Part shown: positions 2,736 through 43,380 of the stretch, in pieces | Numbering within the stretch: position 1 is the stretch's first letter | How the letters are laid out: each line of letters begins with the position of its first letter | IMG/VR virus record: IMGVR_UViG_3300036792_000097 | Span: 1 to 59,760 of that record | DNA from: a virus | Length of the DNA: 59,760 nt | Strand: one strand, 5' to 3' | Notes under the pieces: generated by a model | Told to the model about the DNA's origin: nothing | Seen by the model: the letters and a program-made list of their open reading frames with translations, nothing else | Database searches by the model: none | Translations under genes and position numbers: made by a program

Positions 2736-5003
2736 ATGAGCACCGAGGACACGACGGCGCGGGCGGACGCCATAAGCCACCTGGACGGAAATCCGCCGAT
2801 GGCCCTGGAAGCGCCAGATCTGAAATCCCCCCTCCAGGCTGAAAACCCCATCGATCCTCCCAAGCGCAAGCGGCGCACGCCCGAAGAGGTAGCTGCGGAC
2901 AAGGCGGCCAAGTTGGAAGAGCGGCAGCGCAGGAAGGAAGAACGCGCCCTCGCGGTCGCGGCGGCCAAGGTCCAGCGGGCCAATGAGCGTGCCCAGGCCA
3001 AGATCGACGCCAAGCTCGCCAAGATCGCGGAAGCCGAACGCGGCCGGGTCGCGCTGCCCGCCGTGGTGTTCCGCAGCGGTGAAGTTCGCGCCATCAGCCT
3101 CACCGACGCGTGGGCCGTCGTTTCGATGTACCTGAAGCACCTGTTCCTGGACTGCGAGAACTCGGGCTACCCGATCGGGCACAAGTTCTACGAGTTGCGG
3201 ACGATTCAGCTCGGCGGCGAGGAAGCGGCTGTGGTCTTTGACGCCGCAGACGCTGAACAGCGCCAGGTGGCGTCGCTCGCGCTGGCCATGGCGGAGAAGA
3301 TCACGGCGCACAGCGCGGCGGCCGACGCCATCCCGGTGGTGCACGCGGGCCTTATCGGCTGGGACGAGATCTGGGCCAAGATGCACGATTCGGTGCTCTA
3401 CCTCAAGCTCACCGATCCCAAGCTTTCGGGTTCTGAGGCCAACAAGCTCAAGGAAGCCGCAAGCGACATGCTGCGCGGGTACGCCGTGAGCCCCCAGGCC
3501 GAAAAGGACAAGAACGCGCTTTTCAAGACCATGGGCTGCCTGATGGAAACCGACAACACGACGCCGCCGGAGAAAAGCGGCTGGATGCAGGTTTCCAAGA
3601 ACGCGGTCGTCATGGTGATTTACGCCGGAAGCGACGTTCTGGACCTGGCCGCCGTAATGCGCGTCCTCCCCCCTTTGCCCGTGGCCGATTCCGTCCTGGA
3701 GCGCGAAAGGTGGTTTGAGGCCAAATGCGCCCGAGTCGGCTATGACGGGTTCAAGCTCGATCCGGTCCAGATCAGCGGAAAGCTCACCGAGCACGAAACT
3801 GGCTTTATCAAGACCCAGCAGAATGCCGCCGTTTTGTCGGACGGGCTCATAACCAACCCGAAGTCGCCAGAAGTCATAAAAGTGCTCACAAGCCGGTACC
3901 CGCATATCGACTTCAAGGTCAAGGACAAGCAGACCAAGCAGTACAAGGACTCAGCGTCCAAGGCGGTCCTGGAGCGCGTCAAGGTCCAGGTGAAGGAAAC
4001 CGACCCGCTGCTGTGGCACCTCGCTGACCAGATCCTGGAGCACCGGCACCACTCGACCACCGCCAGCCTGCTGCTGAGGCCGCTGGAGAACCTGTGCCTG
4101 CACGGCGACGGCCGGATGCGCCCCACTGTGTACACGATCAACGCCGACACCGGCCGGTGCTCGTGCGTCCGTCCCAACGGCCAGCAGTTCAGCCGTCAGG
4201 GCGGCATCAGGGCGTGCGTGTGCGCCGACGACGGCTACGTGATGTGCAACGCCGACTTCGAGGGCTGCGAGATCCGGGTGGGCGCGGCGCTGTCCGGCGA
4301 CCGTGGGCTGTACGAGGCCGAGGTGTCGTCTCTGTGCTACCTCTGCAACGAGGACCCCTGCGGCTGCGGCGGCAAGCACATCGGCCTGCACTGGAAGACG
4401 GCGCATACCGCATTCGGCAAGGCGGCCACCAAGGAAAACCGCTACGGGGCCAAGCGCGGCACGTTCACCCGGCTGTTCGGCGGCGGGGCGGAGACGGCTG
4501 CGCAGCAGGTTGGCTGCCCGGTGCGGGACATGCAGGCGCTGTTCGAGGCGTTCAACGCAGTCGCGCCGGTCTACACCGCCTGGGACAACCAGCTCAAGGC
4601 TGCGTTCGAGGCCGGCACGCTGGTGTGGCGTGACTACACGACCGGCGAGAACCACTTCGAGCCGCTGGACGGCAAGCGCCGTGGAATCTACCGGACCTAC
4701 TCCGGCCGCCAGATCTACATCAACGCCCCGCACGCCTTCGGCAATTACGCCATCCAGGGCACCGCACGGGAGCTGCTGCTGGACGGGGTAATCCGCTGGA
4801 GCCAGACCCGGTGGGGCCACCTGCCGCTGCTCCCGATTCACGACGAGCTGCTGACATGGGTTAGGGACGCTGACTTCGAGGAGGCGACCGTCACGCTCCA
4901 GGCGTGCATGGAAACCCGCGTGCTGTCCTCGCCTGGCTTCGAAGTTCTCGTAGGCGCTGACCCCGAGCTGAAGCGCTACACGTACTGGCCGGACTCAAGC
5001 TGA
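2736..5003 (+). CDS. DNA polymerase I-like (family A) replicative polymerase
   Basis: The 755-residue protein copies DNA. Polymerase motifs are visible: motif A NADFEGCEIR with catalytic Asp about residue 507, motif B KRGTFTRLFGG with Lys about 573, and motif C HDE with Asp about 703. An LDCENSG segment near residue 139 and TAHSAAADA farther on resemble exonuclease motifs I and II, so 3'-5' proofreading may be kept in divergent form. A Lys/Arg/Glu-rich coiled segment precedes them. A Cys-rich insertion (CYLC, then CGCGGKH, from residue 534) interrupts the palm between motifs A and B and looks zinc-binding. ATG 2736 is chosen because AAGGA lies seven bases upstream. The frame is open back to GTG 2649, where no good ribosome site is seen. 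Confidence 0.9.
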   Translation: MSTEDTTARADAISHLDGNPPMALEAPDLKSPLQAENPIDPPKRKRRTPEEVAADKAAKLEERQRRKEERALAVAAAKVQRANERAQAKIDAKLAKIAEAERGRVALPAVVFRSGEVRAISLTDAWAVVSMYLKHLFLDCENSGYPIGHKFYELRTIQLGGEEAAVVFDAADAEQRQVASLALAMAEKITAHSAAADAIPVVHAGLIGWDEIWAKMHDSVLYLKLTDPKLSGSEANKLKEAASDMLRGYAVSPQAEKDKNALFKTMGCLMETDNTTPPEKSGWMQVSKNAVVMVIYAGSDVLDLAAVMRVLPPLPVADSVLERERWFEAKCARVGYDGFKLDPVQISGKLTEHETGFIKTQQNAAVLSDGLITNPKSPEVIKVLTSRYPHIDFKVKDKQTKQYKDSASKAVLERVKVQVKETDPLLWHLADQILEHRHHSTTASLLLRPLENLCLHGDGRMRPTVYTINADTGRCSCVRPNGQQFSRQGGIRACVCADDGYVMCNADFEGCEIRVGAALSGDRGLYEAEVSSLCYLCNEDPCGCGGKHIGLHWKTAHTAFGKAATKENRYGAKRGTFTRLFGGGAETAAQQVGCPVRDMQALFEAFNAVAPVYTAWDNQLKAAFEAGTLVWRDYTTGENHFEPLDGKRRGIYRTYSGRQIYINAPHAFGNYAIQGTARELLLDGVIRWSQTRWGHLPLLPIHDELLTWVRDADFEEATVTLQACMETRVLSSPGFEVLVGADPELKRYTYWPDSS

Positions 5004-5005
5004 GG

Positions 5006-5011
5006 TATGCT
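5006..5011 (+). promoter_or_regulatory. -10 element TATGCT for leaderless start at 5018
   Basis: TATGCT is followed by six bases and then ATG 5018. The same TANNNT-N6-ATG layout occurs before several other genes here. It starts three bases after the polymerase stop codon. Confidence 0.5.
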
Positions 5012-5017
5012 GGCGTC

Positions 5018-5341
5018 ATGGAACCGTAGGTACATCGCCTCTACACCGTGACCAGGGAAGACCTCCCTGCGGCGGTGCAGGCTGTTCAGTCGGCGCACGC
5101 CGCCGTGGAGTACGCGGCCCGCTACCCGGCCGTCGCCGGGTGCACGCTGGTCATGCTGACCGTTCCGGGCGAAGAAGCCCTGCGTCACCACTCGGCCATC
5201 CTCGGGTTGCACGGCATCGACGTTATCCAGTTCCGCGAACCGGACCTGGGGAATGAACTGACCGCCATCGCGGTTAGCCATCCTGGTGCCCTCCGCCGGC
5301 TGGCGAAGCTCCCCCTCCTGTTGCGAGAGGGGGTGATGTGA
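5018..5341 (+). CDS. Peptidyl-tRNA hydrolase (PTH2)-like protein with in-frame UAG at codon 4
   Basis: From the leaderless ATG the frame reads M-E-P-UAG and then VHRLYTVTREDLPAAVQAVQ, with HAAVEYAARYP and EPDLGNELTAIAV farther on. This pattern resembles PTH2-like hydrolases, which release peptides from stalled peptidyl-tRNA. The segment VHRLYTV would be the first beta strand of that fold and lies between the UAG (5027-5029) and the only later start, GTG 5048. Starting at GTG 5048 gives a 97-residue protein without this strand. Amber read-through would give 107 residues. A tRNA-like gene with anticodon CUA lies 270 bases downstream of the stop. The family assignment is from pattern recognition only, and a sequencing error at the UAG cannot be excluded. 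Confidence 0.6.
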
Positions 5342-5544
5342 TGGAAGAGAACATGTCATGGCTCCAGGCGAAGTGCGCTGCCCAGCGGCAGGCGAATGAC
5401 GCCCTGCACTCCACTGTGGTCCGCCAGCGCTTCGTGCTGCGGATCGCGGGTGAGCTGGGTCATCTCCCGACCCGCGAGGAGTTCATCAAGTACCGCGACG
5501 CGGAAAACGACCAGGCGCGCAAGCGCATTGGCGATCCCGAGTAA
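5341..5544 (+). CDS. Hypothetical 67-residue protein
   Basis: ATG 5341 overlaps the stop of the PTH2-like gene by one base (TGATG), with GAGAGGGGG about seven bases upstream, so the two are probably translationally coupled. GTG 5338 is an alternative start. The protein is helical and rich in Arg and Glu (RQRFVLRIAGELGHLPTREE). No family is recognised. Confidence 0.7.
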   Translation: MEENMSWLQAKCAAQRQANDALHSTVVRQRFVLRIAGELGHLPTREEFIKYRDAENDQARKRIGDPE

Positions 5545-5610
5545 CATCTACCTGGGCACGGCGACCTGAAGCCATGGGCCGGGTTGATCACCGGCCGCCG
5601 TGCCCCCTAT

Positions 5611-5684
5611 GTCCCCAGGACCCTTGAGGGAGGGGTGGCCGCCCCTAAAGCGGCTTGCTGCGGGTTCGAAACCCGTTGGGGACT
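5611..5684 (+). tRNA. tRNA-like gene, anticodon CUA (candidate amber suppressor)
   Basis: All four stems form. The acceptor GTCCCCA/TGGGGAC has 7 pairs, the D stem ACCC/GGGT 4, the anticodon stem GCCGC/GCGGC 5 and the T stem GCGGG/CCCGT 5, with a TTCGAAA loop and a 5-nt variable loop. The anticodon loop is CCCTAAA, so the anticodon (5645-5647) is CUA, which reads UAG. Odd points are C at position 33 instead of U, G at 8, A at 10 and T at 14, and CCA is not encoded. It could be a working suppressor, a degenerate tRNA or a decoy. The PTH2-like gene with an in-frame UAG just upstream supports suppression. Confidence 0.62.
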
Positions 5685-5686
5685 CT

Positions 5687-33510: not shown

Positions 33511-33584
33511 CGCGGGATGGCGCAGTTCGGTAGCGCGGCGGGCTCATAACTCGCAGGTCACGGGTTCAAATCCCGTTCCCGCAA
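33511..33584 (+). tRNA. tRNA-Met (CAU), initiator-like
   Basis: All stems form: acceptor CGCGGGA/TCCCGCA, D stem GCGC/GCGC, anticodon stem GCGGG/CTCGC, T stem ACGGG/CCCGT. The anticodon is CAT at 33545-33547. C1 faces A72 without pairing, the hallmark of bacterial initiator tRNA. G29-G31 face C41, T40 and C39, close to the three G-C pairs of initiators. The typical A11-U24 pair is not present. CCA is not encoded. A TACAGT -10-like word lies about 60 bases upstream. Confidence 0.88.
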
Positions 33585-33801: not shown

Positions 33802-33882
33802 GGGTCTGACGGGTTTTGACTGAGCGGAAGACCGCACGCGGAACGACTCAGGACCCCGGTTCGACTCCGGGCAGATCCACCA
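33802..33882 (+). ncRNA. Miniature tmRNA-like RNA (tRNA-like domain only)
   Basis: The 5' end GGGTCTGACGGGTTTTGAC resembles the start of actinobacterial tmRNA (GGGGCTGAACGGTTTCGAC in Mycobacterium). The 3' end, GGAC followed by a T-arm CCCGG-TTCGACT-CCGGG and CAGATCC-A-CCA, matches the tmRNA end, with CCA encoded. GGGTCTG pairs with CAGATCC (one G-T). As in tmRNA there is no D stem. CTGAG (33820-33824) and CTCAG (33847-33851) make a short P2-like helix. Only 22 bases lie between them, so the tag reading frame and pseudoknots are missing. No longer tmRNA with a matching 5' end is visible upstream. Confidence 0.65.
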
Positions 33883-42500: not shown

Positions 42501-42679
42501 AGCTAGTCATCGAGGTAGAAGACAACATAGACGAGGCTGTCCGGCTGATCTCATGGATCAGGGGCCGCAAGATGAACTCCGAAGGCGAGGTCGTCCGCAT
42601 CGGGTACAAAGACCGGACCCGTGCCCCGCAGGAGTTCGCATCGCGCATCATGGGGCTGACTGTGGAGTTCGAAGCATGA
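42497..42679 (+). CDS. Hypothetical 60-residue protein
   Basis: GTG 42497 is coupled to the preceding stop. It reads KLVIEVEDNIDEAVRLISWI, a ferredoxin-like start, then a basic segment. It precedes the Thg1-like gene by a four-base overlap. Confidence 0.6.
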   Translation: MKLVIEVEDNIDEAVRLISWIRGRKMNSEGEVVRIGYKDRTRAPQEFASRIMGLTVEFEA

Positions 42680-43380
42680 CCACCGACAAGGCTGTTACGC
42701 CCGGTGACAGCCTGGGTGACCGGATCAAGAAATACGAGGCCGTCACCCGGCCGTTCCTGACGCCTAACCAGCCCGTGTTCGTCCGGGTTGACGGCAAGGC
42801 ATTCCACACCTGGACTCGGCACATGGACAAGCCGTTCGACATGGCACTTGTCCAGGCGATGCAAGATGCCGCCGTGTTTACCGCGAGGCAAATGCAGGGG
42901 TTCAAGCTCGCGTACGTCCAGAGCGACGAGGCGACGTTCATGATTACCGACACGGACTCGATCGAGTCCCAGCCGTGGCTCGGGAACAATGCCAACAAGA
43001 TCGTGTCCATTACCGCGAGCATGTTCACCTGCTACTTCAACGGGGCGTTCCGCCGGGCACTTCCCGGCGCTGAAGTGGCTCCCGCGTTCTTTGATGCCCG
43101 CGCGTTCAGCGTGCCGTACGAGGACGCGGCTAACGTGTTCATCTGGCGGCAGCGTGACTGGGAGCGCAATTCCCTGTCCATGCTCGGCTATCACGTGGCC
43201 GGCCACAGTCGCATGCAGAATCAGAAGCGCCGCGACGTGCACGACCTGCTGCACCAGTTCGGGGTGAACTGGGCGGACCTTGAGCCGGTACTGAAGAACG
43301 GCACATGGGTGCACGCAGACGGGAAGCTGACGCACGACAAGCTTATCTACGCAGACATATCGGAGCTGATCGGTGCCTAA
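42676..43380 (+). CDS. Thg1-like protein (tRNA 3'-5' polymerase family), 234 residues
   Basis: VFVRVDGKAFHTWTR places an Asp at residue 39. YVQSDEATFMI places Asp-Glu at 84-85, the spacing of the two metal-binding carboxylates of Thg1. WRQRDWERNSLSMLGYHVAG matches the conserved family segment. Thg1 adds G to the 5' end of tRNA-His, and Thg1-like proteins repair truncated tRNA 5' ends in 3'-5' direction. With the phage's initiator-like tRNA, CUA tRNA and tmRNA-like RNA, tRNA repair or 5' editing is a likely role. The start overlaps the previous stop (ATGA). Confidence 0.82.
   Translation: MTTDKAVTPGDSLGDRIKKYEAVTRPFLTPNQPVFVRVDGKAFHTWTRHMDKPFDMALVQAMQDAAVFTARQMQGFKLAYVQSDEATFMITDTDSIESQPWLGNNANKIVSITASMFTCYFNGAFRRALPGAEVAPAFFDARAFSVPYEDAANVFIWRQRDWERNSLSMLGYHVAGHSRMQNQKRRDVHDLLHQFGVNWADLEPVLKNGTWVHADGKLTHDKLIYADISELIGA

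What the first reader, a model, noticed from the sequence alone, without database searches (positions are those of the whole stretch)
5018..5684. PTH2-like gene with in-frame UAG next to a phage tRNA with anticodon CUA
Seen: leaderless-type -10, ATG, GAA, CCG, UAG, then seven codons (VHRLYTV) before the first later start GTG 5048. Those seven residues fit the first strand of the PTH2 fold. A tRNA-like gene with four intact stems and anticodon CUA lies 270 bases downstream of the stop. Inference: the phage makes its own amber suppressor and this gene needs it, so full-length hydrolase appears only after the tRNA is made. PTH2 acts on peptidyl-tRNA, so the target and the switch belong to the same process. 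Most other genes end normally, some at UAG, so this is selective read-through and not a recoded genome.
Basis: partly seen in the sequence, partly recalled or inferred. Interest (0 to 1): 0.9.

Follow-up and report, generated by a model that had tools for sequence, protein, structure and literature searches.

The report
Phage hydrolase gated by suppressor tRNA
Many unrelated bacterial viruses place a stop codon two to four codons into the gene of a tRNA-processing enzyme and also carry a tRNA able to read that stop, so the enzyme should be made only when the virus's own tRNA is present; this looks like a natural genetic switch that I could not find described.

Summary
In the window, ATG-GAA-CCG-TAG precedes a reading frame that folds as peptidyl-tRNA hydrolase 2 (PTH2), and a CUA tRNA lies 270 bases downstream. 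Related phage genes from IMG/VR and GenBank (86 clusters at 90% identity) show the same design: ATG, usually zero to three codons, in-frame TAG, then PTH2 with no other usable start. Gate and CUA tRNA go together (60 clusters with both, 4 gate only, 4 tRNA only, 18 neither; uncorrected Fisher p=3e-11). Elsewhere TAG behaves as an ordinary stop, so this is not a recoded code. The base after the gating TAG is a purine in 61 of 62 cases, against 34 of 72 at real TAG terminators: the context known to favour suppression. Cultured phages have it too: XacN1, RAS14, GAP32, XbC2, ME3, pT24. XacN1's authors sought a target for their CUA tRNAs and found none; ORF364 is a strong candidate. A neighbouring HD-domain gene is often amber-gated as well. 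Read-through itself, the inserted amino acid, enzyme activity and the benefit of the switch are inferred, not shown. The window's own tRNA is divergent (C33, G8).

The parts
5006..5011 (+). -10-like hexamer TATGCT, placing a transcription start at or near the ATG (leaderless-type)
   Evidence: sequence; not tested further
5018..5341 (+). amber-gated PTH2-like gene: M-E-P-[UAG]-VHRLYTVTRED...
5027..5029 (+). in-frame amber codon (codon 4), followed by a purine (G)
   Evidence: conserved position in relatives; purine context
5048..5050 (+). GTG, the only later start near the N terminus; lies inside predicted strand 1 and is GTC in the closest relative
5338..5544 (+). small ORF between PTH2 and tRNA (weak HNH-repeat match); a similar-sized ORF sits in the same place in L127
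5611..5685 (+). tRNA with anticodon CUA (5645-5647), candidate amber suppressor; divergent (C33, G8)

Best explanation
This is a translational gate. Ribosomes that start at ATG 5018 reach UAG after three codons and stop. When the phage's CUA tRNA is present and charged, a fraction reads through and makes the PTH2-like hydrolase, which has no other good start. One genome carries both lock (UAG) and key (tRNA), so the enzyme appears only where the phage's tRNA has been expressed: a coherent feed-forward (AND) switch. The products gated this way are tRNA-directed: PTH2, which by family releases peptidyl-tRNA, and often an HD-domain protein most like the HD domain of tRNA nucleotidyltransferases. 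Shown by sequence: conserved UAG position, conserved partner tRNA, lack of alternative starts, TAG as an ordinary stop elsewhere, suppression-favouring context. Inferred: read-through, charging, inserted residue, hydrolase activity, benefit of the switch.
For: (1) ATG-X(0-3)-TAG precedes PTH2 in 62 of 86 clusters by script, plus two longer cases by eye (L048, L086). The background for other long frames in the same loci is about 5% per stop type. (2) Gate and CUA tRNA co-occur: 60/4/4/18 after whole-genome checks, Fisher p=2.8e-11; labels change 12-14 times on the PTH2 tree. (3) Natural contrast: GAP32, XbC2 and SNUABM_19 are gated with CUA tRNA; their relative RaK2 is ungated, no CUA tRNA was found in it, and its paper lists none among functional tRNAs (PMC3622015). 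(4) 56 of 60 gated genes have no ATG/GTG/TTG between TAG and the domain. (5) The base after the gate is a purine in 61/62 versus 34/72 at TAG terminators, p=4e-12. (6) TAG ends 55 of 579 long ORFs in gated loci, and the in-frame extension after it is as short as after TAA or TGA (medians 9, 7, 8 codons). (7) The anticodon loop CTCTAAA is the commonest although tRNA bodies differ widely. (8) The HD gene beside PTH2 has its own start-proximal TAG in L026, L058, L059, L061, L064, L067, L073, L089, or an internal TAG in GAP32-like phages. (9) In RAS14 and XacN1 an HD-PTH2 fusion begins ATG AAG TAG.
Against: No experiment. The window's tRNA lacks U33 and U8 and scores below Rfam's cut-off, so it may be weak or decayed. 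Four ungated clusters have a CUA tRNA (L071, L095, L131, L133), and one large gated genome (LR745206) has none that I found. In mycobacteriophages the TAG lies between a Shine-Dalgarno-like sequence and the annotated GTG start (GGAGGC GTG TAG GTG), so it may not be read there. Fisher values ignore shared ancestry, and the purine context is partly inherited.
Confidence: 0.85

Rival explanations
1. Genome-wide recoding: UAG is simply a sense codon (code 15) and the one in PTH2 is nothing special.
For: CUA tRNAs occur in code-15 phages (PMC11210395). L025 (735 kb) and L060 have a second in-frame TAG inside PTH2, and Lak phages are relatives, so a few members may be recoded.
Against: TAG terminates long ORFs normally in the window (14 of 63) and in gated loci (55 of 579), with short in-frame extensions. 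Apart from L025 and L060 no stop lies in the first 80 domain codons of 62 gated genes. Recoding would scatter TAG, not fix it at codons 2-5.
Confidence: 0.04
2. Termination and restart: ribosomes stop at UAG and re-initiate on the next codon, often the near-cognate AUU (as infC starts at AUU), so no suppressor is needed.
For: The codon after TAG is ATT in 30, another ATH in 6 and GTN in 16 of 62. Mycobacteriophages have GTG there with a well-spaced Shine-Dalgarno-like sequence.
Against: Does not explain the CUA tRNA association. GAP32 has AAT and RAS14 and XacN1 ACC, none of them start codons; window and L127 have GTA.
Confidence: 0.08
3. The gene starts at GTG 5048 (or further in) and the upstream frame is untranslated.
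For: GTG 5048 is the first start codon after the TAG and gives an open frame of 97 aa.
Against: It cuts the first strand. The skipped residues align with conserved strand 1 in relatives. The closest relative has GTC there and no nearby start; 56 of 60 gated genes lack any start in this interval.
Confidence: 0.04
4. Sequencing error or pseudogene in a metagenome contig.
For: The window is one IMG/VR contig.
Against: Same architecture in finished genomes of cultured phages and in dozens of contigs; the frame after the TAG is intact and conserved.
Confidence: 0.01

Closest known systems
Synthetic suppressor-tRNA feed-forward 'leak dampener' (Ho et al. 2020, PMC7969014)
   Same: A suppressor tRNA enables read-through of a stop placed in a regulated gene, giving AND-type control and low leak
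   Different: Engineered in E. coli; here a natural arrangement conserved across phages, with the stop at codons 2-5 of a tRNA-directed enzyme
Code-15 recoded phages with suppressor tRNAs (crAss-like, Lak and others; PMC11210395, PMC13037316)
   Same: A phage-encoded CUA tRNA reads UAG
   Different: There UAG is sense in many genes; here UAG is an ordinary terminator elsewhere and is read in one module
PTH2 of jumbo phages (Iyer et al. 2021, PMC7824862)
   Same: Phage PTH2 proposed for rescue of peptidyl-tRNA after tRNA attack
   Different: No mention of stop codons, suppressors or read-through in that paper
RF2 (prfB) and IF3 (infC) autoregulation (own knowledge)
   Same: A translation-factor gene controlled by an unusual codon early in its own frame
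   Different: Those use frameshifting at UGA or an AUU start, not a dedicated suppressor tRNA
Pyrrolysine decoding (own knowledge)
   Same: CUA tRNA and selective in-frame UAG; ARAGORN labels any CUA tRNA 'Pyl'
   Different: Here the tRNA bodies are varied and mostly canonical in the D and T arms, and the UAG lies outside the folded domain; no PylRS was looked for

Membership tests
PTH2 (PF01981) | PTH2 fold | tested here: met
   Window model: all 10 PDB hits at E<=0.001 are PTH2 structures, probability 1.00, TMq 0.62-0.70
PTH2 (PF01981) | sequence profile match | tested here: inconclusive
   Window alone no Pfam hit; several relatives pass the cut-off, GAP32 and RAS14 fall below it; family profile finds 2zv3 at 4.5e-10
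PTH2 (PF01981) | conserved Q-x-x-H and C-terminal acidic/Thr motif | tested here: inconclusive
   Q and H invariant; E-P-D...T conserved in place of the canonical D-A-G-x-T-Q
PTH2 (PF01981) | peptidyl-tRNA hydrolase activity | not testable with these tools
   -
amber suppressor tRNA | CUA anticodon in a cloverleaf | tested here: met
amber suppressor tRNA | conserved tRNA bases (U8, U33) | tested here: not met
   Window has G8 and C33; 60/67 and 62/67 CUA tRNAs in the set have U8 and U33
amber suppressor tRNA | charging and decoding of UAG | not testable with these tools
   -
code-15 recoded phage | UAG used as sense across the genome | tested here: not met
pyrrolysine system | PylRS and Pyl biosynthesis genes | not tested
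   no search run
HD domain of tRNA nucleotidyltransferase (partner gene, other phages) | HD motif and similarity | tested here: inconclusive
   PF01966 below cut-off; PDB 3wfp HD region E=2e-4; fold search gave nothing; no HD gene found in the window

The most novel reading that the evidence does not exclude
A self-limiting suppressor circuit. The CUA tRNA switches on, through the gates, the very enzymes (PTH2 and the HD protein) that act on acylated or damaged tRNA ends, and these in turn strip or process the suppressor, holding read-through to a safe level. The tiny open frame ATG-X-UAG may also act as a minigene that sheds short peptidyl-tRNA, the substrate of PTH2, so the unread message would report on the need for the enzyme. 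This would be a natural closed feedback loop between a stop codon, its suppressor and a peptidyl-tRNA hydrolase.
Probability: 0.25. Interest if true: 0.97.

Novelty: new variant of a known kind. Interest (0 to 1): 0.92.

Why it matters
Phages with the standard code often carry CUA tRNAs with no known purpose; XacN1's authors searched for a target and found none (PMC5852040). This gives a strong candidate target, conserved across phages of enterobacteria, Xanthomonas, Stenotrophomonas, Acinetobacter, Tenacibaculum and uncultured giants, and in altered form in Mycobacterium phages. It suggests that dedicated suppressor tRNAs can serve as on-switches for single modules, an intermediate between no suppression and whole-genome recoding, and one way recoding could begin. 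It also shows that annotation pipelines miss or break these genes, and it can be tested now in cultured phages.

Tried and rejected
DNA-level search of the window against the phage collection: nothing. Profile scan with 17 diverse proteins: too divergent to seed; a smaller set worked. Recoding, downstream start and sequencing error were each tested and rejected as the main explanation. XacN1 ORF295, its annotated peptidyl-tRNA hydrolase, has no gate and is a second, more canonical PTH2; the gated gene is ORF364. Apparent gated genomes without CUA tRNA mostly had one far away or missed by ARAGORN. Fold search with the HD model was uninformative. Literature searches found no description of the arrangement; only open-access PMC papers were searched.

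Full report
What is there. The window is one IMG/VR virus record of 59,760 bases with phage terminase, portal and head protease genes. After a family A DNA polymerase gene ending at 5003, ATG 5018 is followed by GAA, CCG and TAG, then an open frame to TGA 5341. That frame is a peptidyl-tRNA hydrolase 2: its predicted structure hits only PTH2 enzymes at E<=0.001 in the PDB, and the family profile finds M. jannaschii Pth2 at 4.5e-10. The later GTG at 5048 falls inside strand 1. A CUA tRNA lies at 5611-5685.

The arrangement is conserved. The first distant homologue (L002, 42% identical, a 362-kb AT-rich phage) reads ATG ACT TAG ATT AAC..., with a CUA tRNA 60 bases upstream. Its relatives and the 462-kb LR756500 show the same wherever the 5' end is present. 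Wider scans gave 130 loci in 86 clusters. 62 clusters have ATG (rarely GTG or TTG), zero to three codons, TAG, then PTH2; L048 and L086 are longer versions by eye. The closest relative of the window, L127 (50% identical), has ATG TTC TAG GTA ACT, then a small ORF and a CUA tRNA in the same order.

Cultured phages. XacN1 ORF364 and RAS14 encode an HD-PTH2 fusion starting ATG AAG TAG, with CUA tRNAs elsewhere in the genome. GAP32, XbC2 and SNUABM_19 read ATG GCA CAA TAG, ATG GCT CAC TAG and M-T-H-TAG, and their separate HD gene has an internal TAG (ELDTG-TAG-GDP); all have a CUA tRNA 3-4 kb downstream. Acinetobacter ME3 and Tenacibaculum pT24 are the same kind. XacN1's authors noted two CUA suppressors and no target.

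Association with the tRNA. With whole-genome checks the table is 60 gate and tRNA, 4 gate only (three are fragments under 17 kb), 4 tRNA only, 18 neither; Fisher 2.8e-11, uncorrected for kinship. Several ungated loci have 16 to 21 other tRNAs but no CUA. Labels change 12 to 14 times on the PTH2 tree. Within the RaK2-like phages, RaK2 itself has neither gate nor CUA tRNA.

Not a recoded genome. TAG ends 14 of 63 long ORFs in the window and 55 of 579 in gated loci, and in gated loci reading past it gains no more sequence than past TAA or TGA. Inside the PTH2 domain a TAG occurs in only two of 62. Start-proximal ATG-X-stop before other long frames is about 5% per stop type, and many of the TAG cases turned out to be the HD partner gene or PTH2 fragments.

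Context. The base after the gate is A or G in 61 of 62, against 34 of 72 at TAG terminators; a 3' purine is the classical favourable context for amber suppression (own knowledge). The CUA loops are mostly CTCTAAA, as in efficient amber suppressors (own knowledge), while tRNA bodies differ, so the anticodon, not one tRNA lineage, is what is kept.

How it probably works. Without charged CUA tRNA, initiation at ATG yields a tiny peptide; with it, hydrolase is made. Because lock and key are both phage-encoded and usually close together, this is a feed-forward AND switch. Early drop-off of short peptidyl-tRNA is known to be recycled by Pth (PMC10192219, abstract), so the aborted mini-frame might itself create substrate; this is speculation. 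Why PTH2 and the HD protein are chosen is unknown; both are tRNA-directed by family, which invites the feedback model in the section on the most novel reading.

Limits. Nothing here shows read-through directly. The window tRNA is among the most divergent (C33, G8), so in this phage the pair could be weakening. In mycobacteriophages (Cane17, Myrna, Phabba) TAG sits between a Shine-Dalgarno-like sequence and the annotated GTG, so read-through may have been replaced by an ordinary start although the CUA tRNA is still adjacent; these three are counted as gated in the table.

Noticed in passing
window 33802-33882: Rfam tmRNA match of only 81 bases that spans model positions 1-374 (53.7 bits), ending in CCA: looks like a tmRNA reduced to its tRNA-like ends, beside a tRNA-Met at 33511. 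Sequence read only.
   Followed up: no
window 42553-43377: tRNA-His guanylyltransferase (Thg1) homologue, PHROG 4717, E=5e-76, between terminase and portal genes.
   Followed up: no
L032 5330-5870, L036, L037 (GAP32-like phages): HD-domain gene downstream of PTH2 interrupted by a conserved internal TAG (ELDTG-TAG-GDP), annotated as separate hypothetical proteins.
   Followed up: partly
L074:1717-2449 and L109:2106-3117: A second PTH2 N terminus with its own gate (MT-TAG-INHKLIIITRRDLHPGYQ...) running into unrelated sequence upstream of the full gene: duplication, intron or mobile element.
   Followed up: no
L022, L024 (Myrna, Phabba): The CUA tRNA is annotated as tRNA-Ser or tRNA-Arg in the public records; ARAGORN reads anticodon CUA.
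   Followed up: partly
L025 (LR756501, 735 kb) and L060: Gated PTH2 with a second TAG inside the domain; L025 has two CUA tRNAs. Possibly partly recoded genomes.
   Followed up: no
L030 (XacN1 ORF295): XacN1 carries a second, more canonical PTH2 without a gate, so one phage can have both kinds; RaK2's paper also names a Pth2 under another ORF number, ORF188.
   Followed up: partly
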